Positions 34,526 through 63,993 of a stretch of 64,000 nt of DNA are shown one piece after another. A model generated the notes under the pieces. It was not told where the DNA came from, did not search any database, and was given only the letters and a program-made list of their open reading frames with translations. Location: NCBI RefSeq assembly GCF_032854445.1, contig NC_088295.1, positions 15,487,385 through 15,551,384 of the forward strand, in the 5' to 3' direction. This DNA comes from Liolophura sinensis (taxonomy: Eukaryota > Mollusca > Polyplacophora > Chitonida > Chitonidae). Within the stretch, counting starts at the first letter, position 1; each line of letters opens with the position of its first letter. A program made the position numbers and the translations under genes.

Positions 34526-35176
34526 ATGGCTTACCATGGGAACTGCTGTGTGTGCGCCCTGACACTCTGTCTGTGTGTGTTCGGCAGTATGTCCACATCC
34601 ACAGGCGTCTGCCTCCTTCTTAGTTACAAGAAATTTGGCGGTATGTCTTCAACGGAGCGCACCTTTCCGACCGGGGACTGGACGAAAGTTGCCGGCATTG
34701 TCATAAGCAGTGCTGGTGCTGTTATGTTCATTAGCGGAATTCTGTTAGCCTTCTGCTGTCTCACTACTGGTATGACCCCGAAGTCAAAAGAAAAATCACA
34801 TAACAAATACGAGATTTTTCACAACGATAGCGAGGACCAAACTGAGAAAAAACAGGAATCCGAAAAGTGCCAAACTGAACGGAAATCCAGAACGAAGTCG
34901 TCCGGAACTGTTGATGTAAAGAGTGTATCATTTGTGGACTGTGCTTACGACGTGGCATTTATAGAGCAGGAAAACACCGGTGCTAAGGCTCTCCAACAGC
35001 CATCTCCGAAGCGAAATGATGGGGTAGAAAACAACGCCATTGAGTGTGTATCGGAGGGCGAGACTTGTACAGACCTCGACATGGATAGGGAGCCGCGGAT
35101 AGAATATCCCAGTGTTAATCTCGACGCATCGAAGACGTTCCCAGATGTCCATAGATACCACAGCGTTACCATATAA
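34526..35176 (+). CDS. two-pass membrane protein with CCxC motif, family member 1
   Basis: 216 aa in one exon whose acceptor AG is at 34520-34521. Met follows four exon bases; the frame is open upstream only across the intron, so the Met of MAYHGNCC is chosen. Cys7, Cys8 and Cys10 open TM1 (about 8-33, with further Cys 15, 17 and 29). Gly20, Thr26-Gly27, Leu32 and Phe37 keep the family spacing. The loop holds Trp52, TM2 is about 55-78 and ends in FCC, a likely palmitoylation site. The remaining 138 residues are hydrophilic, Lys/Glu/Ser-rich, with a small basic patch (ERKSRTK). Topology is inferred as cytoplasmic N and C termini. The loop is six residues longer than in the other two members. 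I do not recognise the family. The layout resembles TMEM171/TMEM200-type proteins, but without supporting identity. Confidence 0.8.
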   Translation: MAYHGNCCVCALTLCLCVFGSMSTSTGVCLLLSYKKFGGMSSTERTFPTGDWTKVAGIVISSAGAVMFISGILLAFCCLTTGMTPKSKEKSHNKYEIFHNDSEDQTEKKQESEKCQTERKSRTKSSGTVDVKSVSFVDCAYDVAFIEQENTGAKALQQPSPKRNDGVENNAIECVSEGETCTDLDMDREPRIEYPSVNLDASKTFPDVHRYHSVTI

Positions 35177-35251
35177 TTCCACATAAAGTGCCAAATACAG
35201 TAGGGAATTGTGCAATACTCAAAGATAAAATGCATGGATTGACATCATTTT

Positions 35252-35257
35252 ATTAAA
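35252..35257 (+). terminator. candidate poly(A) signal (ATTAAA)
   Basis: Common variant hexamer about 75 bases after the stop codon of family member 1. The downstream GT-rich element is weak, so usage is uncertain. Confidence 0.2.
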
Positions 35258-35460
35258 ATCTTGATATTAACCTGTTTTCGCCGCGATATATAGCTGCATA
35301 ATATTCCTGATGTGAATTGCGTAATATTATAGTGATTAATTCCATGGTAATATTGTGTTTGGAAGGAAGAGAATTATTGTTATCACAGTTGCACGTACAT
35401 ATATTCATGATGCACTTAATCCGCAGTAACACTGGATCGTACATCTATATGATTTCTGGG

Positions 35461-35653
35461 TCCGTCTCCACAAAGCTGCTTGTGACTTAAGTCAAACTTT
35501 AAAACCTCTTCAAATTGATTATTTCTTGGTACTGAAAGTTGAAATTTAGACACATTTGTCTTGAGAAAACATTGATAAGGCGGGGAACAAAATACGCGTT
35601 AAGATCGTATTCCCAATTTTTGACTTAAGTCAGAACTGGCTTTTTGGAATCTG
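35461..35653. mobile_element. MITE with gacttaagtca in both termini
   Basis: The left end tccacaaagctgcttgtgac and the right end (reverse complement tccaaaaagccagttctgac) are each followed by ttaagtcaaa. This gives inverted repeats of about 30 bp, 190 bp apart. There is no coding content. It lies just downstream of family member 1. Confidence 0.7.
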
Positions 35654-37587
35654 TATCGTGAGGTGAACCGACACCACCAATCATCTGCTGGCACGATCAT
35701 TAGCACTGCACGACCAATCGTGTGCCTGCGTCATTCCCGATCAGCCACGACAGGTGGTGCAACCATGCTCAACTGGTGGTACGACCTTTCTGCGACCAGT
35801 AAAGCTCGGCATAGTGGAGAGCATAAGACACGACTTAACTCAACCCAACGGGTCGTACAAGATTCACCCAAGACGCTGAAGGTCATATGGAGTTCATACA
35901 CTTAACGACTTCAGGACAACTCCAGTTGAGTTGCGTCGTTATTTATCATATATAAGCTTTTACAAGCCGACGCAGCAGTCTGGCTGAGATGAGCTAGGCT
36001 TTAAGCTTCAGTCGTTATGTGCATGTTGGTTTAATCCACAGTCGTACGGCCATCAGCCACTGGGATCATCAGCATACGACCAGTTAGGCTCTCGTGCATA
36101 CAGAGTATTATGATTTGAAATCGCAGGTCAGAAGTTTTGTATATCATCACCCAGGACTTCTGCGGAAAATCACACCATCTGTCTACGATCTGTCCACGAT
36201 ACCAACAATTCGGTCGTAGTTAGGTGATACATTGATCGCAGGAATGAATGGTGTCATTACCACACAAGCCTTCAATGGTATGAGATACATTATGTCCCAT
36301 CGATATGAAGCTACCTGGTCTTTAACGGTAAAGCAGGTGATATTTTTAAGCTATTTATTGACCATTTTGTGTTCATTTTATACCAGAACAAGTGTCGTAT
36401 GGCAATTTTGGACCATAACGGTTTCTGAAACTTAAATATAGGATTTATCTTTTTATATTTGTGCGTGTCTTTATGAAATGACGGTATCCTTGTTCAAATC
36501 CGGAAAGGGAATGAGTGTAGATAAGTGTATGTTAGGTATGGATAAGTAACGATGTGTCCAGGGTATTTGTAAGTGTCATGTATGAAGGACATTTTAAATG
36601 TAAACACTCTCCATGAATGGATGAACATGCGTGCATTCTGTTTCGAAATATCCATTGAGAGTGTGCTAGAGTTGCTATATTCACATTTTCGTTTGACACA
36701 AATTATAGGTTGATATTTTCCCTGCATGGTATATAGATGGCCCACACAGGACTGCGAGCCATATTGGTATAGATTCCTAACGTCTTTCACTTTTCTTGGT
36801 AATACATACGTGTAGAGTATACCACTAGTGTAAATGTTGTTTACAATTTTACTTGGCAAAAATCTCCGCATGTGCAATCACAATATAGTATACTGATTTA
36901 TAATGATATGACGGTGGAGTTTGACTTGTCTTTAGCGCTAATAGACATGCAGCCAGTCAGCTACTCCTGACTCTATATGTCCGATAATGTACAGCGAGGG
37001 ATTCTACTCCTTGCTTTGTTGTCCATTCTTCACAAGCTCTTATCGATCCATGTTATATAGATGTCTTCCCAGTGAGATCTTTGATCTTTTGTTGCTCACA
37101 GGTATCAAACTTGTTGCATGGCGTCTTGAATAGACCTGTGGTTCTATAGTTCATCCATAGCTGACCAAACTCTTACGATACCACAGGTTTGTACAACATG
37201 TGGTAACACAACCAGATTTATCCAAGGTTGTCATGACAACCTTATGCCTGGTCATGAAAGAGTCACTGTGTACTGAAGATGCCGTCTCAGCGGAATGGTA
37301 AAGTTCCATCATCAGCACTTCATGGCAACTCCTACCACTCGAATTTTTGTTTCATCTTGCAGAATACTGGTTATGGTGGGTTTTTTTGTGGTTAGCCTAC
37401 ATTTGTTATATTTTACAAATGTGTGAAAGAGCAGTGTGATGAGAGTTGTGAACTTGTATCATTTCAATACGGATAATTACAACAAAGACATTATAATGTT
37501 GCATGTATTTTTGTTGACCGGGTTATAATAGTATTAAACGCTTTTACAGGACGTGCGACATCATACACCCTAAAGGCATCGGAAATT
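35654..37587. other. intergenic DNA, no gene recognised
   Basis: The 35660-36230 part is GC-richer and repeats words such as cgtacgacc and cgaccag, suggesting a worn mobile fragment. The rest is unique AT-rich sequence. No supported gene. Confidence 0.35.
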
Positions 37588-37977
37588 ATACTCCTTATGC
37601 GCATGCGCCGCTCCCAACGTTCTTTACATCACCGCCACCTCTGGCAAATTTTGTATATAAATCTTGAACTACGCCGAGGTCACTGCTATGGTGATAAGGC
37701 AGGAATTGATGTAAGAAAACACCACAACTCTTTCTAATGTTTCTAATAATACTTTATACACATACATTCTGTTTACCTAAAGCACGCACAACATTTTTCT
37801 AATCAACACCTGAAACAATTTTATTGCTGAATGCTGATTAACTAATCTACGAGAGGACACGGGGGGTGGGGTTAAGCGTGAACAGTCCTACGTGTCGCGC
37901 GCAGGCCTCTAAGGTCAAGCTTTTATAGTGGTAGCAGTGATCTAAAGCGAAACAGTCGCATGCGCTGTAAGGAGTAT
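37588..37977. mobile_element. MITE with GC-rich palindromic termini
   Basis: Left atactccttatgcgcatgcg and right, in reverse complement, atactccttacagcgcatgc form the terminal inverted repeats. Similarity continues inward (ctttacatcaccgccacc against ctttagatcactgctacc). It is about 390 bp with no ORF. A half copy lies at 31984-32110. Confidence 0.65.
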
Positions 37978-40430
37978 GACTGGGTATTGGAATTAAAACC
38001 ATCAGTTTATGTACGATATTCTTGTGACATGGTTTTACATGTCCTGCTACTTAGTTACTAGGGTTAGAAGATGGAAGGGTCAACAGAAATTAGTATTCAC
38101 TCAGAAATCATTGTGATTAATTGTAGCATTTATACTAACCGATTATGTATATACATTTATTCTTTTGTACCGTGCAGGTGTATGATAATGTCTCCACACA
38201 AAATTAGGGACATCACAGCTGAAGAGATAGAGGTGTGCTGAAAGCAATTTGACAGACAATAAGTATTATTAAGTTTGTGTTTCAATATTTTGGTATGTTG
38301 AGCCGATTAGCCATGAGGGCGTTTGACATTCCATCAAGATAAGATTTTATATGGTAACAGAAGAAAGTGAAACAGGTTTTGTTTACATTCTACAGACAAT
38401 AAAGTTCGTTCGTGATGATTGGAGGGTTGCATTTTCTGTCATTTGCATTTTACAGGCTGCACATTGTTTGCTTTCGATAAAAGTTGAAGGTTGCTTTTAA
38501 AACTAGAGAGGCCTAAGACAAATGTATCGTGTTACCTCGCAGACTTATCGCCATTAACAACTCTTGGTACTATATGGTATTACACTGGCTAAATGTGCCT
38601 GCATACGGTCCTGTTTGTAATCGTTGTCGATTCCGGTACTATCTCGAAAGAACTTTTGCCCTGTCTCTGACTACCTCTAACAGAACATAAATGTTAAACA
38701 GCTTATACTCAGTGAAAAACATTTTAACTGTAGCTGTGTTTGAAGTTGATTGTAGCTGTGTTTGAAGTTTAATTGTAGCCGTGTTTAAAGTTTAATTGTA
38801 GCCGTGTTTAAAGTGTAATTGTAACTGTGTTTGAAGTTTTGGCTTCAGTTTTAAAACATTTGATATATATCGGCCTTGGTTCCCAGGGACTGTCAGGCCC
38901 TTCAAAAAATCAGGTAGCATCTTCGAATCCAGCTGTCGCTACTATAGCTGTGATCAAGTAAGGCGGTGGCGCCAGGCACCTTGCGAAGAGCGGATTTATA
39001 CTCCGGACACATTGGTTTCTCCCACCCATAAACATGATTGATCACATTCACATAAAAAGCATGAGAACGACGTAAAGCACCGGTGAAATACAGGAACATC
39101 GGTGATCGAAAAACGACAAGAGCGATAAAACCAAAATTTTCATGAAGGTATAAGAGAAGGAAATTTTTATAATAGTTCATGTAACGGTAGGGGTGATGAC
39201 CTCACTATGAATTCCCTATCACGTGAGCACTTGCAGATTTACATCACACGGACACCGTTATTTCCCTCCAACTTAGAAGCAAGTTCAAAAACCCTGCAAA
39301 TAACTGTTGATAATCAGGCATGTAACGAAGACGAGCTCGGCATACTTGTGGGGTGTTTATTTTTGCTGGTCCCGAATGTGACTGCCGAGTTTAGTTTTCC
39401 GAAACGCAAATCTAGTTCACGGGTCACTGAATATAAAAAATAAAATGGTGAGTGGGAGAAACGTTCCCTGGCCGATGTCACAGACAAGGTGTACTGCTAC
39501 ATGTGTAACGGTCCTGAGTTTTAAATCTCAGTATATCGCAAAGCATGCCTTATTTTTTTTACAGGAAAAGGATTAATTTAAAGCATAATAACTTAACTTG
39601 ATGGAAAAGCAAATTGGGGTTGTGATATTTGGGCTAAACGTTCTTCAATTACTCTATACCAAAATTATTCCAAGCTAAATTTCAGAGAGTATGTCTGCTC
39701 ATTACAACAAAAATGGAATCTACATGTAGACCGGAATCAAGGATTACGAATCCAACCCATATACATGTAGGCTTCCACTTACATACGCTTTCATGATTTT
39801 ATACCTGGGACGTTATTTTCACTATTGATTACCCATTTTGAGACACGAAGTAAATCAGCGCACACAACCATTGTGAGCCAAATTCCAGAGACTGACCTCA
39901 TAGCACAAGGGCTGGAGGGCGCAAGCGCTGCTAAGACAAATAGTTCATACAGGTTACCGTGAAATAATGAGGGAGCGGATCATTTGAGGCAACGATATGT
40001 AAGGGACGCTACTCTCATGGGAGAATTGCCGATAAAGCCCGGTGAGTTGTATCCCTTTTCTTCATTTCGGGTCAAATCAATTGTGCATATCTTCTTGTAC
40101 CGGTCTGTTTTAGTTCAGATTTAGTGTAATAAAAAATCCCGCAGTGTGATAATTAGTGCCATTACTGCATGTTAACCATACTGTAATCATTATAGTGTAT
40201 TACATAATAGGTATAGTGATTATCCTTTTTGTGCTCATTATGTAATAACATTTATTTACATCCGCAGAGATTTCTGGTGTTGACTAAAAAATAGTTCTCG
40301 TTCTTGAAACTAATGGCCGTTCATACGACTGTGGATTTACATGTACCTTGAGGTGATTTGTCAGGAACCTGACTAAGGAACTATGTGAGGTTTCCTATAT
40401 CCATGTATTTAAACACACTAACATTTTACA
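37978..40430. other. intergenic DNA with a worn dispersed repeat
   Basis: No gene recognised. The minus-strand ORF at 38902-39180 (92 codons) overlaps a sequence that looks like a known-type dispersed repeat (gggtgggagaaacc, cgcaaggtgcctggc), so I do not call it a gene. Confidence 0.35.
38729..38842. repeat. 23-bp tandem repeat, 5 copies
   Basis: Units of tgtagctgtgtttgaagttt (+aat) start at 38729, 38751, 38774, 38797 and 38820. The spacing is 22 or 23 bp. Confidence 0.95.
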
Positions 40431-40436
40431 AAAGAA

Positions 40437-40591
40437 ATCTTACTATAGATATCCGGATAATGACAAATTCTTGAATTTGAGGATTGTTTAAACTTAATCA
40501 GGAAGACCAAACTGTCTTACCATAGATATCCGAATAATGATAAATTCTTGAATTTGGGATTGTTCAAGCTTAAACAGGAAGTCCAAACTGT
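40437..40591. repeat. 77-bp tandem duplication
   Basis: Two copies sharing atagatatccg, taatga, aaattcttgaatttg and ccaaactgt, starting at about 40438 and 40515. Divergence is about 10 per cent, including a one-base deletion. Confidence 0.93.
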
Positions 40592-40604
40592 AAGCAATGT
40601 ATCA

Positions 40605-40785
40605 AAATTATTTCATTTATACGACGGCGGCCAGCAGTACGGTTAAAAGAAACCGAACTGCAGTTTGCAGAGCTCCCCACGTAGGCCTACATCTGGGGAA
40701 GAAGCTAGCATGAGCTGAACTCACAGCAATTGCAGTGGCTCGTGGATCATTGTTCCGCGCTAGCACGCTAAACGCCTACCTGATA
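40605..40785 (-). mobile_element. SINE, main family, with part of the head
   Basis: The minus-strand copy includes the complement of tatacgacggcggccagcag, tagcatgagctgaactcac and a tRNA-head remnant (tagcgcggaacaatgatcc). It has lost the characteristic tail end. Confidence 0.7.
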
Positions 40786-41280
40786 TAAGATCAGAGGATA
40801 ATGAGGCATGACAATTGGGGAAGGACGATATGTTTTTATCGTGGCCATACATGTACATGTATCGTGAATTCAGGGGTATTACAATTGGGGCGCATAGAAA
40901 CAAATGCTCAGAAACATGTTTGGGGCAGGCCTACCCTTTGTGTAGTACATGTTACTTGGCAGATAGCACTCGGTCATTATTACTCATACTGCAATGGCAT
41001 TAGCGGTAGCAAATGCTACTAGTGTATTAATTATTACATTATGGGATTTTATTCCACATTCTTGGATAGCTACGTTATGAAAGATTTTACATCCATGAGG
41101 TTGAAGAGGTGACCAAGCATTAATTATGGTACATGTATACTTCTCTCAATCAATTTAACTTTTATTAATCGAGGAGACAATTCTGCAAGACCAAAACTGG
41201 AGAGGAATAATGAATGGATGATTGGCGTTTCAGTTACGGGTAATTAGGTTTGTGTATGTATACTGTGTCTTCTGATGAGC
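40786..41280. other. unique DNA, no gene recognised
   Basis: Contains the ACATGTACATGTA word common in this genome. No coding or repeat structure was supported. Confidence 0.35.
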
Positions 41281-41283
41281 ATT

Positions 41284-41545
41284 GCGAGTTCATGCTGACA
41301 AAGAGCTGCCGCCTCTGAGGTGTCATGTGGAAGACACTAGACATGACACCTCACCTGGTTACCTTATACTAAATCACATTATACTGTCACCGGGCCAACC
41401 AATCCATGCTCCAACCCATCAGTGCTGGGTGCCAATTGAGCGAGGCAGCAACAACTACCATTTTTAAAGTCTTTGGTTTGATCTTGGGCCTCCCAACTTC
41501 GAGGTGGACGCTCTAACCATTGGGCCACCGAAACGGTCAGCTGGA
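41284..41545 (-). mobile_element. tRNA-derived SINE, third family
   Basis: On the minus strand the head reads ggcccaatggttagagcgtc (box A), then caagatcaaacc (box B region). The body follows (aaagactttaaaaatggtag, ctgctgcctcgctcaattgg, ggttggcccggtgacagtat). Head and body differ from the other two SINE families here, so three lineages have inserted in this window. Confidence 0.75.
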
Positions 41546-42038
41546 GGAGATGGGCGAAAAGATACATGTATCAACATCCCCACCCAAAGGTACAGACCTG
41601 CCCCTCGGCTCCTTCCCCAATGGTTTTCACTTCAAAAAACTATGAATACCGTCTCTGAAAAACAAATTAACATTTTGGAAAAGTTTGACAAGTCCAACTG
41701 AGCATGGGAAAAGATGTTGAAAATGTCATCCAAAACTGTCACTATGTATCCCGCAGTAATTAGGAGTTGGCCGGGTTTGTGAATAAACATGAACTGCCCC
41801 CAAGTCTGGCAGTTATGTAACGTGAATGGAAGCGACTACTCGTGAATGATTGAATGGATGAATGAATGAATGAAAGAATTGGTGATTTAATCTAGCATCA
41901 TTTGACAAACGTGCAGCACGAGATAGGTAAAACCACGCGGCATTTGCCTTTCACATGAACTGAAATAATTCGGAGACTGTATCTTGACAAAATAGAGGCG
42001 TTACTGAGAAATATAAAACAAGCCTCAAAAATGAAATT

Positions 42039-42160
42039 ATTTATTTATTTGATTGGTGTTTTACCCCGTACTCAAAATATGTCAATAAGACGGTGGCCAG
42101 TATTTGTGATGGGAGGAAACCAGACAGACCCCAGGGAGCCCCACCACCATCTGCAGGTCA
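42039..42160 (-). mobile_element. 5'-truncated SINE, main family
   Basis: ttatttgattggtgttttac, then cccgtactcaaaatatg, cggtggccag and gatgggaggaaacc mark the family in antisense. Short similar flanks (atgaaatt at both ends) may be the remains of target duplications. Confidence 0.8.
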
Positions 42161-42164
42161 AAGA

Positions 42165-44240
42165 TGAAATTTAAATAAATTGTTGACTCATCAATTACTC
42201 ATTACCATTAAAACCATATTCCCCTTTTTGGAGCTGCTTTTCAGGTATCTTTTAACAATGGATGGTTCAAGTTTCGCTGGTATATCCTTGCAATAAAACA
42301 CACATTTAGCCCTAATATAAACAGATAGCTACAAGTACGGGGCTAAGCATGTCGCTGTTTATTGTGTTGTATAGGTGCATTCATGCAGTTTTGCTGTAAG
42401 ACGAAGCTTTAAATTTGGACAGTTTATTTGCTTGATAGTATTGTTGAACACCAAAGACCGATAACCCTTGTTGTGTTCGTGAAGAGTGCTTGAAGACAGG
42501 CAATACAGAAATATCATTGAGAATGTGTTTTAAAGCCTATACCTGTCGCCTAAACAAAGAGTTGCATGCCTTACCCAAAAGGTATAAGCTTGAATTAAAG
42601 GTGCATCCATAAACGTTAACATGAAGAAAGAATCCATTCCTGCATAATTGTGTAGTTGGTGACAAGACACAGTTCATCCCTCCATTTAACATGTATTCGA
42701 TACACTTCATAAATCTCGCCAGTGGAGGCAATCCTACATGTTAGCCATGGATTAGTCACCATGTGGACTAACTATGAGAATAACAATCACTATTTTTATG
42801 TCCTCTTCCTGACGTCAACACTTTACTTTTTCAAGGTTATAAATGAAGAATTACTTTTACTAATTTGTTTACATCTAGTGTGATAAAGGAAAATGTATAT
42901 ATAGTGTAAGAATTTACGACCAATTAAACTTGCTACAAGTGTGTTGTTTTCCGGTTGGAGCAAGTGTGCCCGGAACCTGGCGAATAGGGAGGCTTTTCTA
43001 TAATATCTCTCCGGTTTTCTGTTTGGTTTATTGTAGGGTGCATTCTCAGTCAACAACGCGAATTCCGTTACACGAGCTTAAAAAATAGGCTTACTCATTT
43101 TAGAAGATTCGCCAGATAGTTATACTGCGCATACACCTATATATTATAGCGGTGAATAGATAGAATATTCTGTGAAGTTTTCCACCATCCATACTTGCTG
43201 TCCCAGCTAGAACACATGTATTATACTGAACGTGGAGATATGGGACAAAGAGTGCTTGGCTTTTCCTTGGTTTGTTTGAATATAACCTGAGGAGACCATC
43301 AAAGATTTCTGACAAATTGTTTCTGATAACCAAACAAGGTGTAGTGATTATCGTTTTCAATCTCTGTCAGTGTATATTAGAAAGGCTGCTAAAGTTAGAA
43401 AGTTCGATAATATGATCTGTGTGTTTCTAATGTGGTGCGTGCTGTGTGCGTTTTGATCTGTCACTACTTGTCAGTACGTTGATAAAAGAAGGTACATAAC
43501 TGACGTTCCCCCGAACGTGGTGGTGATCGGGACTTAAACAAACACCCGTGGAGTCCCCGTATACTAAGTAGGGCATGGGTCGATAGGGCCTGATTGAACG
43601 CCCATAGATTCCTGGCCCGCTCACACAGTAATAGGACGAAGCGTGTGGGATCGGGCCAGTATCCCGTTAACCAAGGACGGTGGAGTGGAACAAAAGGCCC
43701 ATGACTTTGCTGTGCATGGTCTTATATCGGCTTGCCGAGCTGTGAGCTGGGTGAAGCAGACTGTGAAGCAGTACGAGGCTTGGACATGTCACGAGAGATA
43801 TGACGGGGTGTGTCCTAGGGCAGGTACTCACATGGGACGGGGAGTTACATACGATCTGAGATCTCCAAGAGTAGCATCCGGCAGCCCAATAGGTGAGTCC
43901 TCTTTACACTGACACTTGCCTTCCTTATACACAGCATGGGCAGCCAGCCTGGGGGATAAACGCCTGTGTCCAGCGATGTACCAGGACAGGTGATCTAACA
44001 AAGCTAATTTCATAACGTATAAGCTAATTTCATAGCATAACGAGCATGACGATAGGTGACTCAAACGCAAATATTTGTAATATATAGCGTAAGTCAGTTT
44101 CATTTTCTACAGCAAACATGCATGTTATTCTGCTGGAAACCCTATCAATGCCAATGTTCATAATGGTCGTGTGTTCAAACCCAGCTATCACTATTTCGGC
44201 GGCGGCTTTACCCGTGAGGTACGACAAGGAAGTCATATAG
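42165..44240. other. intergenic DNA, no gene recognised
   Basis: The 43430-43900 part is GC-richer and has an 89-codon plus-strand frame ending near a donor-like caataggtgagt. No domain is recognisable and the segment could be an old repeat. The remainder is unique. Confidence 0.3.
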
Positions 44241-44245
44241 CTGTT

Positions 44246-44430
44246 TAGCAAATTGCAGGTCCATACGTAACAAATTGCGGGTCCGTATGTAGAAAATTGC
44301 CAGTTCGTATGTAGCAAGTTTCATGTTGGTATAGCAAATTTCATGTTCGTATGTAGCAAATTGTAGGTCCGTATGTAGCAAATTACCGGTCCATATGTAG
44401 CAAATGGCAGGTCCGTACGTAGCAAATCGT
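44246..44430. repeat. 22-bp tandem repeat, about 8 copies
   Basis: Unit tagcaaattgcaggtccgta (+tg), with copies diverged by up to about 30 per cent (caggtcc, cagttcg and catgttcg variants). It is an old minisatellite. Confidence 0.93.
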
Positions 44431-46905: not shown

Positions 46906-48314
46906 TACGACATATTTACTTTCAGTAGACCTAACTATAGATATATGCTTGACATGTTTATTAAATTTTATATGCATGTAAAAACTTGTGTTGATTATGC
47001 TATGGACTTTTTCTGTACTTGTACGTCATCAAGAGCATCGAAGGGGAGGGTGAAGGAGACAGCAACTAATATTGCTTGACGAGGATGGCGTCACAGGCAC
47101 AATTGCGCGTACTCGTTGATATATACTCGGGCTATAATAGTGAACAGTGTTGGCGCCTGGCAATGCCAGGCTGGTCGTGGATGGCGGAAGGATGTCTACA
47201 ACATAGGCTAACCATGCTGTTTTCATGCAGTACCAGCAACTGTAAATCAATTAAATGAATTACTGACATTGATTTAAGAAGTAAATTCTTTTTGGCACGA
47301 CATCCCCATACCCATAAATACTGTGTCGTTTGGCAGTGGGTTAAATTAGTCACGATGATTGACAGAATATTTGTGTTCTGCAACAGTTTCGAGACACATA
47401 GGATACCTTTTTAATATATTTTGTCAGTTTTATAATGGGTCTCTCTATCAAGCGAGATAATAGCACGCATCTCGCACAAGCACGTAATAGTAGTTGATGA
47501 AAGGTGAAAATGATGTGACGGTTTGTTGCATAATTTAAATATATGCTTTCGTTTCGCATGAAAACGAAACTTTCGCTTTTGGAACTGAAATATTTTGCCA
47601 AGGATGATTAATTTTTGTGTCGAGATAGAAATATTGATGTTAATAAGTAGATTTGCATGCTTCCTTGATTTTCCAGTACATGTGGATCTAAATGCTTCGT
47701 TTAATGATCCATTTTAGCGTTTGTTAGCATTTCTGTTAGCAGTGGCCAATATACTACACCTTGGTATTGCGTGCGAGGAATGATAACGACATGAGCATAT
47801 CGGCTTCTAATAGACATCATTATTCAGAGGCCCTGATAGCATTATCTATGATGATACATAGGGATATGATCATTGTTAGCCCCAATTCATCGCGGTTCAA
47901 TCTCTGCATATCAACTTATCGATTGCTGAAATCCTTTAGCCGTATCAATGGTTTGAAAGGCAATTGACATCTCCGCTACATCTTGTTTGTCGAGTACAAA
48001 TGCGACATATATATTTATAATGGCCGCAACAGAACAAAATAGAAGGCTAGCCTAACGCCTACATCAACTTTGGGAAGGTAATGGAATATGTGATGTTTTT
48101 GCTCGAATTTGAAAACAAACCACTATAAGCCCTCTGAAAAATATGATTTTTAATAGATATTGATATCATGATGTATCTTTCATGTGTAATGAAGTAACTA
48201 AACAATCCAGTCAAGGTGACAAGCAACATATTAGTTCTTTAACACGAGCCTTCGCCATATCACACAGAATTAGCTTTTATAGAGTTTTAAAAGGTAATTA
48301 TGGATTTCCTTTTC
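46906..48314. other. intergenic DNA, no gene recognised
   Basis: AT-rich unique sequence with no supported coding or repeat structure. Confidence 0.4.
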
Positions 48315-52688: not shown

Positions 52689-52771
<83 letters not shown>

Positions 52772-53029: not shown

Positions 53030-53092
53030 ACGGGGGATGTGGGTGGAGGATTGTGGTGGGGATGGGGGGTGGGGTGGCGGTGGTGTTTGGGG
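53030..53092 (+). other. G-rich tract, quadruplex-prone
   Basis: Repeated G runs (gggga, gtgggtgg, ggggatggggggtgggg, tttgggggtg) on the plus strand. It directly precedes a SINE body, so the tract may have replaced the SINE head. Confidence 0.6.
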
Positions 53093-53275: not shown

Positions 53276-54219
53276 ACTGGGGGGTTCGCACTGTGTTATA
53301 ATGCCCTTGTTGGTGTTGGCAGATCCAAACATAAGATACATGCATAGTGACTAATTAAGTGCAGTGGGTTTCACGATGTATGAAACCCAGATTGCTAGGC
53401 CTGGGTGATGTTATTCTCAGCAGTTCAGAGTCGCGTTCGCATATCTTTGAATATGGCATGAGTCGCTAAATCATAAATTATCATATTAATTTATTTGACA
53501 ACCATTCTCTCAATGGTTTTAAATATTACATTAATTGCGCTTAGAATATTTAAATAAATTGATTCACGTGAAAGGTGGTGTAGTCATTACTAGATAACGT
53601 TAATGCTTAGTTTACTGTCTCATCAAAAAGTATCCTGCCTGTCATTAGGATGTGTTATTCCACCTTTTCTTTGTTGAGTTTCCTTCGTCAAATGGCTCTA
53701 AACAATGAAGGGAATGTGTCAGACGAAAATATTAATACATCCGCATTTAACCCATTAACAGTCGCTTACTTTTGTGAAGTCAATGGCTTGTTTTTAGAAA
53801 GGTCATTGCATTATGCGTGCATGTTTGAGCTGGCATGCAGCATTCGTAAGATCAATGTTCCTGAATTGTATATAAACAAACGAAACATGATTTCCCAAGG
53901 GTGCTCTGCCCGTGCTGTGCGACTACCCATTCTCCAGACTACCGATATTTCACCGGTTCTGCCGTTGTTACATATCACGTGGAGCGTAACGCCAACCCAT
54001 CAAACTGACTTTTTGACCGTCACAGCACGTCCGGTGATGCTGTAGCTACTACCTGGTCTGTCAGTAGGCCTCTGTCCTTTTTTAAAACCGTTACTTGGCT
54101 GTGTCGGATATGAGGCGAATTCATAGATTGAAGCGTGTGTATGCCATAAACATAACACAGTTCAACCTTCTAGAAGTATCTTCCAGAGAATGAAAGCCTA
54201 AAGAAATGTCACATGAATC
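53276..54219. other. intergenic DNA, no gene recognised
   Basis: The plus-strand frame 53650-54045 (131 codons) starts at an ordinary ATG but has no domain, signal peptide or splice support. Treated as chance. Confidence 0.35.
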
Positions 54220-54580
54220 ATTAGATGAATATATAAGCAAGATACAACTTTGAATCCAAGCTAATACAATCATTAGACGGACATGTAACCAAGATACAAC
54301 TTTGAATCCAAGCTAATACAAGCATTAGATGAATATGTAACCAAGATAATACAACCATTAGATGAATATGTAATCAAGATACAACTTTGAATCCAAGCTA
54401 ATACAAGAATTAGATGAATATGTAACCAAGATACAACTTTGAATCCAAGCTAACAGAAACATCCGATGAATGTATGATCGAGGTACATCCTTGAATCAAA
54501 GCTTATGAAATTTTTAGATGAAAATGTTTAACCAAGACATATCTTTGAATCTGTGCCAACGGAACCATTCGATGAATATT
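54220..54580. repeat. 52-bp tandem repeat, about 7.5 copies
   Basis: Units share ttagatgaatatgtaacc, aagatacaactttgaatcc and aagctaatacaa. Starts are near 54220, 54272, 54324, 54357, 54409, 54461, 54513 and 54567. One unit is shortened to 33 bp. Copies diverge toward the 3' end. Confidence 0.93.
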
Positions 54581-54642
54581 TATATGTCCTGTTGTATTAT
54601 AATGAACATTCATAAGCCTATGCCATGCACACGTATTTTAGT

Positions 54643-54775
54643 TCATGGTCGTGGGTTTTCCCCGGGCTCTGCCAGGTTTCCTCCCACCATAATGCTGGCC
54701 GCAGTCGTATAAGTGAAATATTCTTGAGTGCGGCGTAAAACACCAGTCAAATAAATGAATGAATAAATAAATAGA
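54643..54775 (+). mobile_element. SINE 3' half, main family
   Basis: catggtcgtgggttttcccc, gggctctgccaggtttcctc, ccaccataatgctgg, ttcttgagtgcggcgtaaaa and an (aatg)/(aata) tail. The 5' half is missing. Confidence 0.85.
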
Positions 54776-55404
54776 TATTTAAGTTCAAAACCCAACTTTG
54801 CCATATCACATTATTATGTTAAAGTCGTAAGTATGCTGTAAATTATGCAATAACGGGTGTAGATCATAACCATTGACCAGTAGTGTCTTTGATAGGAGAT
54901 ATACTTGCGTGCAAATACATGTGTATTTAGTGTATTATACACACAGTTATAAAAGAGATTTTAGTCATGCTTGTTGACCTGCATTTCGTCTTGCAAGTAG
55001 CGTGATTGTGCCTCATCAACCTTGCACCATTGGTGTTGACGTAATTCTGCATACGCCAGTAATCAATATAGTTGTGAAGGTTGTGGGATACGGATTTGGC
55101 TTGGCGTCGTTCGGGAGCTCGCCATAACCCATCGATTGCTCTTTACACATGCTTTATATATGTATTAATCCACATGCAATTTGGCTATTCTTATGCAATG
55201 AGCCAGTCGCTGGTAGGATAGTTTATGAGCTGCAGGGTGCCGATAAGTACGGTGCATTGGTGAGAATGACAGTAACTGTTAATGAGCTGCCAGGACACGT
55301 ACCGATTTTTAGAACTAATATAATTTTGGATGTCAAAAGTTTGCTTGTAGGAATATACTGTGGTCGTGACATTTCTACAGTGTTACAAGAACTGTGATGT
55401 TGAA
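54776..55404. other. intergenic or intron DNA, no gene recognised
   Basis: The segment around 55085-55200 (gcttggcgtcgttcggg, cgccataacccatcgattgc) recurs diverged at 56645-56750 (ggctagtcgccggtcgg, cgccataacccatcgattgt). A direct repeat therefore brackets family member 2. Confidence 0.45.
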
Positions 55405-55535
55405 CTGCCTTCCACTCTGGTTTCCTCCATCCGTAAATTCTAATTGACCGTCTTCATGTAAGTGAAAAATTCCTAAGCACGGTGTTGAACACTAATCAAA
55501 CAATCAGTCAGTCAATCAATCAATCATTTGATCGA
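55405..55535 (+). mobile_element. degenerate SINE 3' half abutting a splice acceptor
   Basis: cttccactctggtttcctcc, atgtaagtgaaaaattccta, gcacggtgttgaacact and a (caat)n tail ending about 20 bases before the acceptor of family member 2. It sits where that intron's branch point should be. Confidence 0.65.
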
Positions 55536-55556
55536 TCTCCATCTTGTTTGTTTTAG

Positions 55557-56438
55557 ATGTCCGAGGAAGAGGGTATGCAGACTCACTGTTGCTGCTGTGT
55601 TTCAGGGGTTCTCCTCACCTTTCTCGGAATTTCGCTGCTTTCCACAGGCATCTCTATGGTCCTGGATTATGGCGCCTTCGACGTGAGCTCTCTGCCCTCG
55701 GGCTGGCAGAGCTCCGATGGGCAGCGGAATCTCGGTATTATTCTGATCTTTGCAGCTGTTCTGTCTCTCACCATCAGTGTGGTGGCCAGTGTGCTGTTCT
55801 TTACCAGTTGTTACAAGGGTCGCACAGGGTCACATGACAGCGAGACGGGAGCCAAGGGACCTAACCCCGTAGAGGAATCGCCATCAAAGCTAAGTGTTGT
55901 GGTAACTGTGGCAAAACCCTCTGATACGACATCGACTAGGTCGTCACATCGCCGCAGCAAAGGGAAGCATGGCAGGAAAAAATCACGAAAGCAGGCCCTC
56001 GTTCAGTTGGAGACTCACCACGAGAGTATAGAGGAACACTATGATTACCCGCAAGGCAGAGACACTCGCAGCGCTAAAAGACGCTCCGCCAATTCCGCGC
56101 ATTTACGAGAAACACAGAAGCTAGAATCTGGCTGCGCCGTACTACCTGATCACATGGACGGCGGGTCAGACGCGGTCAAACCTGTCACTAATCTACCCCC
56201 TTTACTCATAGCTTCTGCACCGGAGGAGTTCTCCATCAATGATGCTGACAATACTAGCTTAGCCAAATTCAACGAACCGGAAGTGTTTCGGTTAAGTCCA
56301 GAGAGAATGTCCAGTGAGGGCAGTGTGTCTATCATTGCCTCCAGCAGTACTGAAGACACTGTCCGTCCATGGCCCAGTCCGCGCGATACTGCACAGCAGG
56401 AAACGTTTGACAGAGAACTGTCTGATATCCTCAAGTGA
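55557..56438 (+). CDS. two-pass membrane protein with CCCC motif, family member 2
   Basis: 293 aa in one exon. The ATG is the first codon after the acceptor (tgttttag), so an upstream coding exon remains possible. Cys11-14 open TM1 (about 12-36). Gly24, Thr30-Gly31, Leu36 and Phe41 lie at +13, +19/+20, +25 and +30 from the first Cys, as in the other members. The loop has Trp50; TM2 is about 59-82, followed by Cys85. The tail is 207 residues, hydrophilic. It has a dense basic patch at about 128-145 (two Arg-Arg-Ser or similar), RRS again at 175-177, and an acidic, Ser-rich last third. RRxS sites suggest basophilic kinases could act on it, but this is inference. It probably sits in a membrane with both ends in the cytoplasm. 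Function unknown. Confidence 0.85.
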   Translation: MSEEEGMQTHCCCCVSGVLLTFLGISLLSTGISMVLDYGAFDVSSLPSGWQSSDGQRNLGIILIFAAVLSLTISVVASVLFFTSCYKGRTGSHDSETGAKGPNPVEESPSKLSVVVTVAKPSDTTSTRSSHRRSKGKHGRKKSRKQALVQLETHHESIEEHYDYPQGRDTRSAKRRSANSAHLRETQKLESGCAVLPDHMDGGSDAVKPVTNLPPLLIASAPEEFSINDADNTSLAKFNEPEVFRLSPERMSSEGSVSIIASSSTEDTVRPWPSPRDTAQQETFDRELSDILK

Positions 56439-59400
56439 GTCAGTTTCCATGTCCCCTGTTCAAACCTGGAAGTTCTGGACCAAGCAATCTGTGATAATAT
56501 GGACGCCATGCGTCTGTCTCCGACCAAGTGTGATCTCACCACATCCATATCCCAAACAAGGTGCTAAAACAAACAAGTAAAACGTCTGTAAAACCGGCCT
56601 GACTAAATTGTACCTTTTTGTAGGAAGTTTATAGGAATATGGATTTGGCTAGTCGCCGGTCGGTAGATCGCCATAACCCATCGATTGTCCCTTATACATG
56701 CTTCATTTACGAATTAATCGATATGCGAATTGGCCAATCTTATGCAATGGTTCTTGAAAAAAAACACATGTCCTTGTCACTGGCATGCGAAACATTTTGG
56801 ACATGCATTGGAAGGCCGAGTAAAATTCCACACGTCATGCCAAAGCAATTTGTAAAGTTGCGGGGGATTACATTCAGCTGTAAATTTAGCTTGATTTTCC
56901 GTTACCGGTGACTGCGAAGTGCCCGTATATATACGGGCTTTGAAATATACCACTCCTGATACCACTCCTGTTTGACAAGATCATAATTTTACGACCAAAA
57001 GCTGAACGGTTATGTAGTTCAGTTTGTTGACTGCTTGTATACTACGCACAGCTGATTTTACATAGGTTTAAGATCAGTTATTAATTATTAATATTTGGTA
57101 CAAGTTGTTAGTATTCTTGAATTTATTTCCTTTTTTGTGATCGCCAACTTCGTCGTTAAAATTTGATAAACAGGGTACTGGATGATCTCCTTGTGGTCTT
57201 TTATTGTCTACGCCTTTCCGTATGACGTATGTGGGCAATTATTGGTTGTAATACATGTGTTCAGCGTTTTGAACCTGTTTCAGTCACGCTATGTAAACAA
57301 GTAAAGAAAGAAAACTGTCTAGCGAGTTAGATCTTATACATTTAGACACATGCAAAGGGCAACCCCACAATGCTGCTCACTCCGGTGTCACGTGATACAA
57401 CGAGGTCGTCGCCAAATCGATGAAGACATGCTCACGCCCGCACCGACAGCGCACAGAATGGCCCGGAAGCGATAAACGTTGTCCAGGGATACCAAATGTA
57501 AACAGTACTGTATAGCTGAAAACACAAGCAGTCACAAAAATTATTTTACGTTCCATTTCTCAGATTAGACAGTGGTTTGTACAAAAGATCAGATTAATCT
57601 ATAAATCTCCATTGGTGATACTATTCAGGTATGAAGTGTGGTTTCTATATGTATCTCTAAAGAAACGGGCTATTTTGTTTTTTCCTTTTTTGTTTTTGTT
57701 TCTTTGTTTTTGTTTTCAAAGAACTTTCACACATTACATGTCTGCATACACCAGCACTAAACGAACCAGTTCTTATCAACAATATGTCATTTATGCGCAA
57801 GTCTGTCTAATATGTATATCCGGATAGTTCTATAGGCAGTCATTCAGGATTTTATTCAGGCAACTAATTCGTACGGCTTACTGCACTGTTAATTAGTCAC
57901 ACAGAGCATTATTCATTTTACGAAAACATATTGCCTTTACAACAATAAACAATTTACAACACTAAACACATAAGTTGTTATAGTAGTTACAGAGTAAAGA
58001 AGAGACACTGATCAGTTTAATCTATGCCATTCTGGTATTTATTTCAATGCATTTTTAATTACCGGTACCCTTTTGGAGTGTCGAAACTCCACGATAGTTT
58101 TAATTCTATCAACGTTCAATTCTGCAGTTCCTGTTTAGCATGTGGACAAACTTGTTGATACACGTCTTAATGTTTTGTTTCGATCATTCAGTGGTTTAAA
58201 TATGTCGGTAGCCATTGTTTCGCTGTAGTGACCTCAGTAAAATATTTAGCTGTGCACATTCAGCTAAAATTACATGTCCAGTATTGTTTTGGTGGGGAAA
58301 AAAGACGGTGAGAGCTGTCGCCCTTTATGACCGCAGTTGTTTGTTCTGTGCAGTCTTACCAAATGAGACCTAGGATTTTACCAAATTCCTATAACCTACA
58401 CCAAAGATCACAACAACCCCGCTGACTTACATTTATTAACTGTACTTGAACTCTTTATCAATGTCAAATGTCAAAAGCTTAATAAATTAAACGATACGCA
58501 ATTTTCAGATGGTTATTCAACGTGGAGTACTTATTTGTAGTGGATGTTTATTTGTTCACGTGCAAACGTGTTTACTGCACTCGTACAGGACCCCGGGCTA
58601 AAGTATTGCTCGAAGATTGCATTTCTAGGGTAGTCGTATATAGGGTAACGCTCAACCACTGTTAATATGTAACAAAGTTGTCATTTTCATATGTGATAAT
58701 TATATTTTTTGAGCACATTTTATTTTACCATCGTTTTCTAGGTCTTGTGGATAGAATAGCATTGCTCATCAAATATACTGCTGTTATGTACATGTACAAT
58801 GAAAATATTTGTCACTGAGTTTTACTCGTTATATCATTAATTTGACAGTGTTCAATGTGAGCCAGTGTGATAACGAAACAAATGAACAAATCGTTAGTCC
58901 CAATAGGCCTGCTGATGTTTTTTTTTTCTCATCTCTATTTTGGAGTTCTTTTTGAGAGTACCTTGTTTTATTTTTCCTTGTGAATCAAAATCGCAGAATA
59001 CTTTCTATCAGTGTAAGCGTGTGTAAAATGTGCTCGTATTGCTGAAGGTGTCATGGCAGTTTCCGGAGACGTTTAAAGAGTTCTATAATGTCAATGCAAA
59101 ATATGTATTTATTAATTCTACTTTTTACAGTATTTCGGTGATACAGCTATATGTGATATCTCATCCGTCCACATGAATTAATTGTTTTTTCACAGTAATG
59201 ATGTTTCATAAAATATATATTCCCGAGTTTAGTAAACAAACTGCTTTGTATCGAACATGGGATTACGATATTCCAAGTATCTACTAGTATTTACTGATAG
59301 ATGTTGGTATATAGGATCACAGTTTCCTGTGCATATTGATAATCAAATTAGCTTTGCTTCTTATTTATTTGCTGTCGGTTAGACCACCATTGATCTGTCA

Positions 59401-59640
59401 GCTAGTAAATTTCAGATGCTTATACATGCTTAAAGAAAATCTTGAATATGTCTACGCAAATAATAAAAGATTACGAAGAACGTCTTTGTTATAATGTAAT
59501 GTTATTTCATATTTTTGTAGATGATTGCATCTCTTTTGAGTTTTTAAAGTTGTTTATTTGTTTTGCTTTTTATTTGACTTCTTTCTGTGGCCTAATTGGA
59601 GCAAGATCCGAATAAAATTTGTGATGCTCAAACTTGTCTT
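56439..59640 (+). other. probable 3' UTR and flank of family member 2
   Basis: No further coding exon. The first part includes the copy of the 55.1-kb direct repeat. The sequence then stays AT-rich with no repeats until a poly(A) signal near 59613. If transcribed to there, the 3' UTR is about 3.2 kb. Confidence 0.35.
59613..59618 (+). terminator. candidate poly(A) signal
   Basis: AATAAA followed by a T/GT-rich stretch (cttcttgggttttgatttag) 30-50 bases later, the expected downstream element. Another AATAAA lies near 59461. Confidence 0.35.
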
Positions 59641-62600
59641 CTTGGGTTTTGATTTAGTTTGTAAATTCTTGGGTTTACTGCAACGAATTATTTAAAGCGA
59701 GAGGAATGGGGAGCATCAGGCAATATGCAGGTGAACTGAATGCATGAGGCTTTCGTTACAGTAAAAGAATAGGTACATAGAAGGTAGTGAAAGGAAAAGC
59801 CCTCAAATCGAAGGAGGCATCACTAAACAGACCACTTAAAACTATGTATAAATATGCTTTAATTTACTTTTTTAGGTTTTTGTGAAAAGAGTGAAAGACG
59901 TTCAAACATTTGAATTCTATGGTGGGCTTTATGAAACATATTATCAGAGGTTAGTAACTCTGACGTCACAGAAAGTTTATCCAACTCTAATCACGACACT
60001 GAATGTTGGAATAATTTTGTTTTACCCATGAGTAAAAGATTACTGGAATAATGTTCCTCAAAATTCATTCCTTCTGGTGAACATGAGGAAATAAGGGTGA
60101 TGTGATGTCAGAGTTCCTAGATACCGTCAGTATTGCTCATAAACGCCGATTATTTTGAATATAGTATTCAAATATTTGAATGCCTGTCAGCACACGTAAA
60201 AAATCTAAAGAAAATTAAATAAAGTTTTCAGTTGCCTGTTTGATGAACCTTACTTCTTATTTTAATTTTCTTCTTTCTTTAATAATTAACTAATAAACAG
60301 ACTTCTATATCAACTTCTGTAAGCAAATATTTACTAATAGCTAGCAAATATTTCAGGATGCGCATTTAATTGCATCTTTGTCAGCCTAAGTATACAAGTT
60401 TCAGTTTGCGTTGGTACTGTTCACAATGATACACGACAAACACCAGAAATGTTCTACATATAGGCGCGTAAATTCACCCAGTATACAATTTTTTCTAATC
60501 TAGTTTATTAGTTGTCGTTAGTCAAATAAACATGTTAGTTGCGCTATGATTCCAACGTGACAGTTTTATCATAATCGATGAAGAAATCTCTCAGCCCAGA
60601 TATTTCTTTTTAACATAACCCATTACAGAATGGAGGAATGGTTACATGGCTTATCGCCACATAGATAATATTTCAGCCATATTGCGGCGAAACATGGAGT
60701 AAGCTCCAACGAAAGTACAAACACGCAGAAATTCTGACTAATACTGTCCATCAGATGAAAAGAATAGACAAGGGACCCGACAGTGCCATCAATCATTGAT
60801 TTCCTGCGGTATCAGGAGACATATTTGGTGGTGTAGGGGTGTCAAATTTCCATTTCATAGTGGATATTACACATGCCAGTCACGTACTCGTATACAGGGA
60901 GATAAATCTTGCAAATGATAAATGCAATGTAGCCTGTAATATACTCGCTCACTCACTGTGAAATACCAGTACTGTATTAAAGAATACCTTGATGATTCTA
61001 AATATTCCATACACATTTCCCTATAACATTGTCATAATCGAAATAAACTGCGTGGCACGTAGAGTCAAAGTGTTAACAATAGGAGTTCGGTGGTTTACAT
61101 TTTCAGTGAATACAACTGAACACGAATTCGCTATATTTTAGAACAAATAAGTGCCGTTTAACACATTGTAACATATTTTTGTAGTTGAAGTAATTAATCT
61201 AAATTTTGACACATTTTATAAGGTGTGATCAGTGTGTGTGATGATAATTATTGAAGCATATAAGCTGTGGACAGCGCTTGTGTGGCCGTTTGCAGAATTT
61301 AACCTGCGTTGAAGATGACTTGTCATCGACCAATGTGATGGGTGTAGCTGTATGTCACACATCAGAATGTTGGTCAGTAACGTGCTGTCCGTTTAAGTGA
61401 AATATTATTGTGGTTGGCGTTAAACAACAACGAAATAAATAAATAATAAGTACATTCCTCAACCGATGATTCGCACGTACAAGTGGCAAAATCATAATAA
61501 TTTTTCAAGAAGTATAACACAGGGTTAAGACCTTCAACAAACGACTTTTATGCCAATTGGCAAAACATATATCAAAACTGGACGTATCTTTAATATAAAT
61601 AAGAGAAAGCCCAACATACATCATTAACAAATGAAACAACACGAAGAAATCATGGATTTTGCATATAGTATGTTGCCTAAACATCACAATGCAATTCCAA
61701 AATGTTGTAGTATTTAACGGATATTGTATAAATGCAAATACTGTTTAATCACTGAAATTTTGTATACAAAAGTGAGACAGATAATTGAGCTGGATATACT
61801 CTCATTTACACCCTTAGCACATGTTCAAGGATGTTGCCCGATACTTTTACGGCTTCCCGTCATTTAAATCTGTAAGGCATTCAAAATACAATAAACAGTG
61901 ATTATTTGCTTGTTGTTTGGTTTCGTACTGAAAGACTTTTTAACTTACAGGACGGTGGTTTGGTTTCAAGAATGGGTGGGGAGGGGGAGAGCAGTAGGTT
62001 TTTTTGTCAGAATAAAACACCTCTACCTTTGGCCAGTATCTAACAAACTTTCCTACACCTGACGTACAGATGTATTCTGTATTGGTGAAAGGTGAGCCAT
62101 CTCCATCGAAGTTCAAGTAAGACTGTTCTTCCACATGTTATCGCTACCTAACATACAGGTATCATTATACTAACATACAGAAATGAAACAATTCTGAAAG
62201 ATGCATCTAATTCTGACGCATTATTATGACAATAATGGTTGTCGGTGATATAGTAAACTAGTGAACTATTTGTAAATTTATACTGTATGTTTATATGATT
62301 TTCGTGTAATGTCGTACTCAAGAACCTGACTGAATCGCTGATGATCATTAGATCCATTTGCACGATTGCTGTTTCAGTGATAGGTGTTTAAATTCTTCAA
62401 TAACAAAGTGCCCAAATCACAATGTAATATCCGCTAAGACCAACATCAGATATTAAACTGCAACTCTTTGAAGCGAATGTTACTCGACTTAACTTCGTCT
62501 CGAAAAAATCGAGAATCATCCAGCGTAACCAGGCTCTTCCTTGTGATTTGCGTTGGGCTGTGTACTGCATGGAGTTTGGCACAAGTGTCAAATACTGGTA

Positions 62601-62916
62601 AGATCATTTGGCACTGGATGGAATAGAGGTGGTTATATACATTGTCTTCATTACACTATAGATATGGTACTGAGACATGGGCATGATATACAAAGGGGTA
62701 AACAAATATAGCTGAGGACAGTAAATTTCTACGAAATACAGACATTTTTACAACTTTTCTCAAAGCTATCAAATAATTGCCTTTGACGTATCCACGAAAG
62801 TTACACCATTCAGAAGTGACACAGATAGGACACAGTGGAGGAAACAAAGCATGTGAGGTTGATGGATGATTCACCTCCTGATTTAAATAAATAACAAAAG
62901 CGCAAAATTTACGGCA
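59641..62916. other. region between convergent family members 2 and 3
   Basis: It holds a worn SINE tail at 61310-61445 (cgtgctgtccgtttaagtga, ggttggcgttaaacaac, aaataaataaataa). There is also a minus-strand side that should contain the 3' UTR of member 3. No gene recognised. Confidence 0.35.
61310..61445 (+). mobile_element. degenerate SINE, main or second family
   Basis: gtccgtttaagtgaaatatt, then attgtggttggcgttaaaca, then an AAATA tail. Recognisable only at its 3' end. Confidence 0.5.
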
Positions 62917-63993
62917 TCACCGATTCTTAAAGGTTATCAGTTCCAACTGTTTCCCTTTGGGGGACTCTGGATGAGGCTCTAACCATCCTGTCTTCCTCCG
63001 ATGAAAATGTCTGTGCCTTTTGTGTTTGCTGGGAACCTTTTTCTTCTTTGGGGACACGGATTTCCTCACAGCGCCTTTGGTCTTGCTGGGTTTAACCCCT
63101 TCCTTCACCACGCCGGGTATTTGTCCATTTTCTACACAGCCTACTCTGTTGTATGTCCTGTAGTTACCGGTAAAGTATATCATAGCTACCAATACCCCGA
63201 CAGCAATAGAGGCGAGTCCAATACTTAATAGCACATAGCCAAACATTAAGCTGGCCTGCGTCATATCCCAGCGTGGGGAAGAACTGTCACCAGGGAAGGT
63301 GTGGTGGCTTAGCACAATGCAGCAACCTGTGAAAAACAGGCTAAATCCAATAAGAGGAAAGAAAACCCCAACTGAGCACCAACAACACTCATACGCTCCT
63401 GCATGGTTACGTCTGAACTTCTGCAAAATAAAACTCATAACATTTAGTAAAATAGTAAACCCGTTGGTAAAGATATATGTTGGTCGTTTGACGTACTGGT
63501 TTTCGTTGGTAACTCAAAATGAGAAATGGCAATGGTGTTATATCGACTCCATGAAACAATGTTCTCGAAATGATTTGCATCGAATACTGACGGTTACGTA
63601 TTTATCTGCCTATGTAACTTCTTGGCGCACCTTATAATGCATACATAACCATGTGCATGTACTGCTGGGAACATTCAATATGTCAGACATGACGAAATAA
63701 ATGATTTGGTAATGTTATAGATCATATCACATGTCGTAGAAGATGACGCGTTGTTGGGAAGCATGGTTCCCAACATTACCTGGATAAACACTGTAATACT
63801 GGGCACAGTAAAAACTGAAGATAATAAAGGACAACCTACCCTTCTTCCACAACACTTTGACCCTGCCATATGTATCATTTGTAGGATAAATTGTCACCAC
63901 TTTCGTAGAAAAAAATGATGTACACCAGTTTCTCTTCACCAAAACATGGGCTTGTATAAGACTTACCATTTTTGCCTTCCAAAACAACGCCAT
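62917..63993 (-). CDS. two-pass membrane protein with CCWC motif, family member 3 (two exons)
   Basis: The exons on the minus strand are 63993-63967 (MALFWKAKM, then GTAAGT) and 63420-62917. They join in phase 0 through acceptor ttttattttgcag, giving 176 aa. The first exon may extend past the window end. An in-frame ATG at 63438 would lie inside the intron and is not preferred. Cys21-Cys22-x-Cys24 opens TM1 (about 22-46). Gly34, Thr40-Gly41, Leu46 and Phe51 keep the family spacing. Trp60 is at +39 as in member 2, and TM2 is about 66-92. The tail is short (about 80 aa) and very basic between residues 115 and 152 (KPSKTKG, SPKKKK, KHKRHRH), ending in LITFKNR. It is the shortest tail of the three. 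Likely membrane protein with cytoplasmic termini; function unknown. Confidence 0.82.
63421..63966 (-). other. intron 1 of family member 3
   Basis: 546 bp between donor ATG|GTAAGT (complement at 63961-63966) and acceptor TTTTGCAG (complement at 63421-63428). No ORF or repeat of note. Confidence 0.55.

What the first reader, a model, noticed from the sequence alone, without database searches (positions are those of the whole stretch)
34526..63993. Undescribed three-member family of CCxC two-pass membrane proteins
Three ORFs at 34.5 kb (+), 55.6 kb (+) and 62.9-64.0 kb (-) align without gaps from the first Cys over 31 residues. All have CC-x-C, Gly at +13, Thr-Gly at +19/+20, Leu at +25 and Phe at +30, then a Trp-bearing loop and a second membrane segment. 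I cannot name a family. Seen: the spacing. Inferred: common descent by local duplication and membrane topology. Clustered Cys at the membrane edge suggests palmitoylation or metal/disulfide chemistry.
Basis: partly seen in the sequence, partly recalled or inferred. Interest (0 to 1): 0.72.

Follow-up and report, generated by a model that had tools for sequence, protein, structure and literature searches.

The report
Three related two-pass membrane protein genes
A probably animal stretch of DNA carries three old, neighbouring copies of a gene for a small membrane protein with two membrane-crossing helices and a cysteine cluster at its start; the copies are real relatives, but no named family could be matched to them here and their job is a guess.

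Summary
Three ORFs, A 34526-35176 (+), B 55557-56438 (+) and C 62917-63420 (-) with a probable first exon at 63993-63967, share a module of about 78 residues: CC-x-C, helix, loop of about 20 residues, helix. The stated spacing is exact. A profile of any two modules finds the third among 1656 ORFs (E 3e-11 to 1e-5); 0 of 2000 locally shuffled versions reach the real score in each of six set-ups. No fourth copy was found in the window. No Pfam or NCBIfam family reaches its cut-off, and PDB searches gave nothing significant. Viral and prokaryote contigs gave no relative; eukaryote sequence, where relatives would be, could not be searched, so 'undescribed' is untested. Best reading: an old local duplicate family of N-in/C-in helical hairpins, probably palmitoylated at CCxC, acting as accessory or clustering partners of larger membrane proteins, in the manner of barttin or NRAC. 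Topology, lipidation and function are inferred; charges leave A undecided. The tails are not shown to be related. Dispanin membership fails on loop motifs and exon structure. A sound but fairly ordinary finding: unnamed two-pass families are, to my knowledge, common in animals.

The parts
34522..35176 (+). Gene A coding exon: acceptor-like TTTGACAG before 34522, ATG at 34526, 216 aa, stop codon ends at 35176
34544..34777 (+). Gene A two-helix module (CCVC ... GMT, residues 7-84)
55557..56438 (+). Gene B coding exon: acceptor-like TTGTTTTAG directly before the ATG, 293 aa
55587..55817 (+). Gene B two-helix module (CCCC ... CYK, residues 11-87)
63967..63993 (-). Gene C probable exon 1 (9 codons, phase 0, donor GTAAGT); inferred
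62917..63420 (-). Gene C exon 2: acceptor TTTTGCAG, module and basic tail, stop codon 62919-62917; spliced protein 176 aa
63157..63387 (-). Gene C two-helix module (CCWC ... NYR, residues 43-119 of the stop-to-stop frame)

Best explanation
Shown: three paralogous ORFs, each with a module of CCxC, hydrophobic stretch, short loop, hydrophobic stretch, followed in the same open frame by a polar tail. Inferred: the frame is one exon that begins just before the module; both ends lie in the cytosol and the loop outside; CCxC at the cytosolic edge of helix 1 (with further Cys at the end of helix 2 in A and B) is S-palmitoylated; the helix pair, with its conserved Gly and Thr-Gly positions, packs against itself or a larger membrane protein (channel, receptor or transporter) and steers its clustering, surface delivery or gating, while the divergent tail binds cytosolic partners. 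The copies arose by old local duplication and diverged in the tail, which suggests different partners.
For: Module homology. Hydrophobic stretches. AlphaFold2 models: helices 9-41 and 53-97 in C, 3-40 and 54-91 in B, ten-residue means of 73-94 inside the helices and lower at their ends; tails mostly 38-53, apart from a C-terminal helix in B at 59-79. Charge: first 60 tail residues K+R 19 against D+E 2 (C) and 15 against 5 (B); N-terminus of C 5 against 1; loops of B and C net negative. Precedents, read as passages: barttin has an 8-residue cytosolic N-terminus, two helices and a large cytosolic tail (PMC6427064), and deficient palmitoylation lowers its channel's current (PMC9409123); NRAC is two-pass with both ends inside and binds CD36 through helix 1 (PMC12436663); the CC motif of IFITM3 is palmitoylated and induces clustering (PMC3282796).
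Against: Charges do not settle topology for A (loop 4 against 2, first 60 tail residues 12 against 12), and B's N-terminus is acidic. The models rest on three sequences, pTM 0.42 and 0.34, so helix packing is unsupported; A was not modelled. There is no evidence on partners, transcripts or lipidation. CC motifs need not mean palmitoylation: the dispanin paper notes them in bacterial members, which it says are not palmitoylated. Tail homology is not shown.
Confidence: 0.4

Rival explanations
1. Self-assembling hairpins that shape or cluster membrane directly (as dispanins/IFITM do), with no dedicated protein partner.
For: Short hairpin with a Cys cluster and conserved Gly and Thr-Gly; palmitoylated CC induces clustering of IFITM3 (PMC3282796 passages).
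Against: Not dispanins by descent as far as tested: both helices lie in one frame, and the G-D / A-x6-A loop motifs are not shared by the three. That does not exclude a similar way of working.
Confidence: 0.2
2. A diverged branch of a known animal two-pass family (for instance TMEM51, TMEM61, TMEM200, TMEM171 or barttin) that HMMER cannot reach.
For: Same overall plan: short N-terminus, two helices, long tail (barttin passages; the TMEM names and plans are recalled). Very weak Neurensin/TMEM74 score for C, 10.3 bits against a cut-off of 27.7.
Against: None of these is listed for three proteins or three modules at E up to 10, within HMMER's filters; I did not check that the library holds each model.
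Confidence: 0.2
3. The ORFs are pieces of larger multi-pass proteins (claudin-, PLP/M6- or tetraspanin-like), with further helices in exons not recognised here.
For: Splice acceptor-like sites precede all three modules and C already needs two exons; a donor inside a tail cannot be excluded without RNA. A weak TMEM175 score (E 0.054, 14.4 bits against a cut-off of 25) lies on the - strand just downstream of C's stop.
Against: Open frames run on to stops: 266 aa stop-to-stop for A and 293 for B, beyond the longest ORF (220) in 100 order-2 Markov sequences of 64 kb; C's 198 is within that range. No claudin, PLP or tetraspanin family listed at E up to 10. On both strands of 54500-64000 the TMEM175 score was the only one at E up to 0.1.
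Confidence: 0.12
4. The CCxC faces the lumen or outside and makes disulfides or binds metal.
Against: It would place the basic tails of B and C outside, against the positive-inside rule; the residues on either side of CCxC are not conserved ligands.
Confidence: 0.08

Closest known systems
[quoted passage not shown]
   Same: Short N-terminus, two helices, long tail; in barttin the ends are cytosolic and deficient palmitoylation lowers channel current (PMC6427064, PMC9409123; passages)
   Different: No sequence match found. CCxC precedes helix 1 here. Analogy of plan only
NRAC (C14orf180)
   Same: Two-pass, both ends inside, small outer loop, an orphan by BLAST; helix 1 binds CD36 (PMC12436663, passages)
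   Different: Large N-terminal and almost no C-terminal part, the reverse of these proteins
Dispanins / IFITM (CD225)
   Same: Two helices and a double Cys at the first one (PMC3282796, start of abstract and passages)
   Different: Dispanins have a splice site between the helices and an intracellular basic loop with G-D and A-x6-A; not shared by the three proteins here
Neurensin/TMEM74 (PF14927)
   Same: C scores 10.3 bits
   Different: Far under the 27.7-bit cut-off; not listed for A or B

Membership tests
Dispanins / CD225 | G-D and A-x6-A in the loop between helices (PMC3282796) | tested here: not met
   By reading: A has GD in the loop and an A-x6-A at the start of helix 2, C has GD only, B has neither; no shared motif in 3 of 3
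Dispanins / CD225 | Splice site between the two helices (PMC3282796) | tested here: not met
   Both helices lie in one uninterrupted frame in 3 of 3 genes
Dispanins / CD225 | Match to the family's profile (CD225; name recalled) | tested here: inconclusive
   Not listed for 3 proteins or 3 modules at E up to 10, within HMMER's filters; presence of the model in the library was not checked
Barttin | Match to the barttin profile | tested here: inconclusive
   Not listed at E up to 10; presence of a barttin model in the library was not checked
Barttin | Two helices, cytosolic ends, palmitoylated Cys | tested here: inconclusive
   Two helices predicted; topology only by charge, lipidation not testable
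Barttin | Binding and activation of a ClC channel | not testable with these tools
   No partner data
   Neither listed at E up to 10, within HMMER's filters; presence of the models in the library was not checked
Neurensin/TMEM74 (PF14927) | Gathering score 27.7 bits | tested here: not met
   C 9.8 and 10.3 bits; A and B not listed
Lophotrochozoan-restricted family | Orthologues in lophotrochozoans only | not testable with these tools
   No eukaryote collection is offered and no genome is held

The most novel reading that the evidence does not exclude
A lineage-restricted, locally duplicated family of palmitoylated two-helix accessory subunits, each copy tuned by its tail to a different channel or receptor: an invertebrate counterpart, by convergence, of barttin-type subunits.
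Probability: 0.2. Interest if true: 0.5.

Novelty: new member of a known kind. Interest (0 to 1): 0.25.

Why it matters
If the family proves unnamed across molluscs or lophotrochozoans, it adds a defined module (CCxC-x9-G-x5-TG-x4-L-x4-F, then a loop and a second helix) that annotators can use, and a small clustered set on which to test whether orphan two-pass proteins act as partners of channels and receptors.

Tried and rejected
Chance similarity of two hydrophobic helices: rejected by segment-wise shuffles, 0 of 2000 in each of six set-ups. A fourth copy in the window: none at a significant score among 1656 ORFs of 25 aa or more; the next ORF scores E 0.26 with the profile of all three. Prokaryotic or viral relatives: 80 and 32 stretches matched short peptide patterns, none confirmed by tblastn at 1e-3; distant relatives that lack those exact patterns would be missed. 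Pfam: the best scores of the three proteins were TctB for C (E 0.023), Trp_oprn_chp for A (0.049) and New_glue for B (1.8), all under their cut-offs; modules alone no better. Solved structures: none for B; for the profile, substance-P receptor at E 0.99-1.2, taken as chance; A and C were not searched singly. Foldseek, model of C only: 222 PDB matches at E up to 10, 0 at E up to 0.001 (50 rows seen); the best, dCTPase at 0.17, superposes poorly (rmsd about 15.6), and hairpins of alpha-pore-forming proteins (SmhB, AhlB) follow at E 0.63-2.1, which I read as a generic helix-pair match. Shared tails: B-C score reached by 46 of 2000 full and 423 of 2000 local shuffles, A-B by 1164 and 1131, A-C by 40 and 20; not shown for B-C and A-B, suggestive at most for A-C. 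The codon score is circular (trained on these ORFs) and weak for C, 15.3 against 20.8 for a repeat-rich stretch. Papers: eight searches showed no paper on this family in the rows listed, which were only the top rows; the library lacks most subscription journals.

Full report
What is there. The window holds three open reading frames that stand out. A (34526-35176, +) encodes 216 residues, B (55557-56438, +) 293, and C (62917-63513, -) 198 stop to stop. A and B also begin right after acceptor-like sequence: at 34522, four bases before the ATG, and directly at the ATG, 55557. So each module probably sits in one exon with its tail, behind an intron. No RNA evidence was available.

Is it more than chance? 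Yes. Offsets 0, 1, 3, 13, 19, 20, 25 and 30 are identical in all three, as claimed; five of them lie beyond CCxC, where shuffles give 0.32 on average (p 5e-5). The pattern occurs in 3 of 1656 ORFs of 25 aa or more, against 13 matches for CCxC alone. Profiles of two modules find the third at 3.1e-11, 1.5e-6 and 9.5e-6, with the best unrelated ORF at 0.043; a single sequence is weaker, A finding B only at 0.024. Shuffling each target within its helix, loop and helix, with or without CCxC held fixed, never reached the real score: 0 of 2000 in each of six set-ups, the nearest being 16.7 against 21.2 bits for A. No fourth copy was found.

Coding quality. A's open frame (266) and B's (293) exceed the longest ORF, 220 aa, in 100 order-2 Markov sequences of the window; C's 198 does not. 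The stronger argument for C is its homology to B. The codon score is circular and I give it no weight.

Age. Identities are 24-31%, and the repeat search at 60 nt or more lists no DNA repeat joining the three. Common descent is well supported and the duplication is old. A and B point one way; C is turned towards B.

Shape. Hydropathy gives two membrane-length regions in each; in A the first is weaker and broken, peak 1.84. AlphaFold2 gives two long helices in C (9-41, 53-97; mean pLDDT 62.0, pTM 0.42) and in B (3-40, 54-91, plus 275-292; mean pLDDT 55.7, pTM 0.34), with confident helix cores and mostly low-confidence tails. A was not modelled. The alignments had three sequences, so packing is open. 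Foldseek with the model of C found no PDB match at E up to 0.001, which says little for a hairpin.

Topology. Tails of B and C begin strongly basic (15 against 5, and 19 against 2 charged residues in the first 60) and C's N-terminus is basic (5 against 1), so N-in/C-in is likely for them; A is undecided (loop 4 against 2, tail 12 against 12) and B's N-terminus is acidic, 0 against 3. With N-in, CCxC lies in the cytosol at the membrane edge, where palmitoylation is likelier than disulfides. A and B also have Cys at the end of helix 2.

Known families. No Pfam or NCBIfam family reaches its cut-off. I considered dispanins most seriously, since their first helix bears a CC motif, and rejected membership on two features read in PMC3282796 (passages): the loop motifs and the splice site between the helices. 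Their profile was not listed either.

Mechanism. The best analogues are of plan, not descent: barttin (PMC6427064 and PMC9409123, passages) and NRAC (PMC12436663, passages), both two-pass partners of a larger membrane protein. I commit to a palmitoylated hairpin acting as an accessory or clustering subunit, at 0.4.

Context. The source is probably a lophotrochozoan, and I would guess a mollusc, from a SINE-like core found four times; that link is recalled and was not confirmed by papers or viral contigs. No genome is held. Long Pfam scans covered both strands of 35200-44700 and 54500-64000, and the + strand only of 9000-24500 and 25000-34500; twelve other single ORFs were scanned; the rest was not scanned. 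They gave one 3-beta-HSD-like exon and one Myb/SANT-like domain, plus scores under cut-off, and no named neighbour close to the three genes.

Verdict. 'Undescribed' is unproven, because the collections on hand hold no eukaryote genomes. Unnamed two-pass families are, to my knowledge, common in animals, so interest is modest.

Noticed in passing
29558-30985: A nest of near-perfect inverted repeats (244 nt 99%, 133 nt 100%, 121 nt 96%, 94 nt 100%) overlaps a Myb/SANT-like DNA-binding ORF at 30396-30689 (+) (PF13837, 1.1e-7 alone; 1.3e-5 and just under cut-off in the longer frame). It looks like a recent mobile element.
   Followed up: partly
15988-16230 (+): Exon-like stretch matching 3-beta-HSD/SDR (PF01073, 2.6e-5, 23.8 bits against a cut-off of 22 in the longer frame; 0.00045 and under cut-off alone).
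   Followed up: partly
6720-6754 (-), 16967-17001 (+), 40607-40641 (-), 54688-54722 (+): SINE-like core found four times with up to 3 mismatches, mean 0.00 in 100 shuffles; recalled as typical of molluscan genomes, not confirmed.
   Followed up: partly
55085-55200 and 56634-56749: A 116-nt direct repeat, 81% identical, flanks gene B.
   Followed up: no
10910-11404, 48304-48521, 49645-49858, 54164-54537: Tandem arrays with main spacing of about 181, 58, 23 and 52 nt.
   Followed up: no
35159-35173: Gene A ends in HSVTI, which resembles a class II PDZ-binding end (motif recalled, not tested); B and C do not share it.
   Followed up: no
about 62699-62857 (-): Weak TMEM175-like score (PF06736, E 0.054, 14.4 bits against a cut-off of 25) just downstream of gene C's stop.
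   Followed up: no
63239-63637 (+): A 132-aa frame antisense to gene C scores E 0.0062 for a PH-like model (PF23634, 16.8 bits against a cut-off of 27); probably chance.
   Followed up: no
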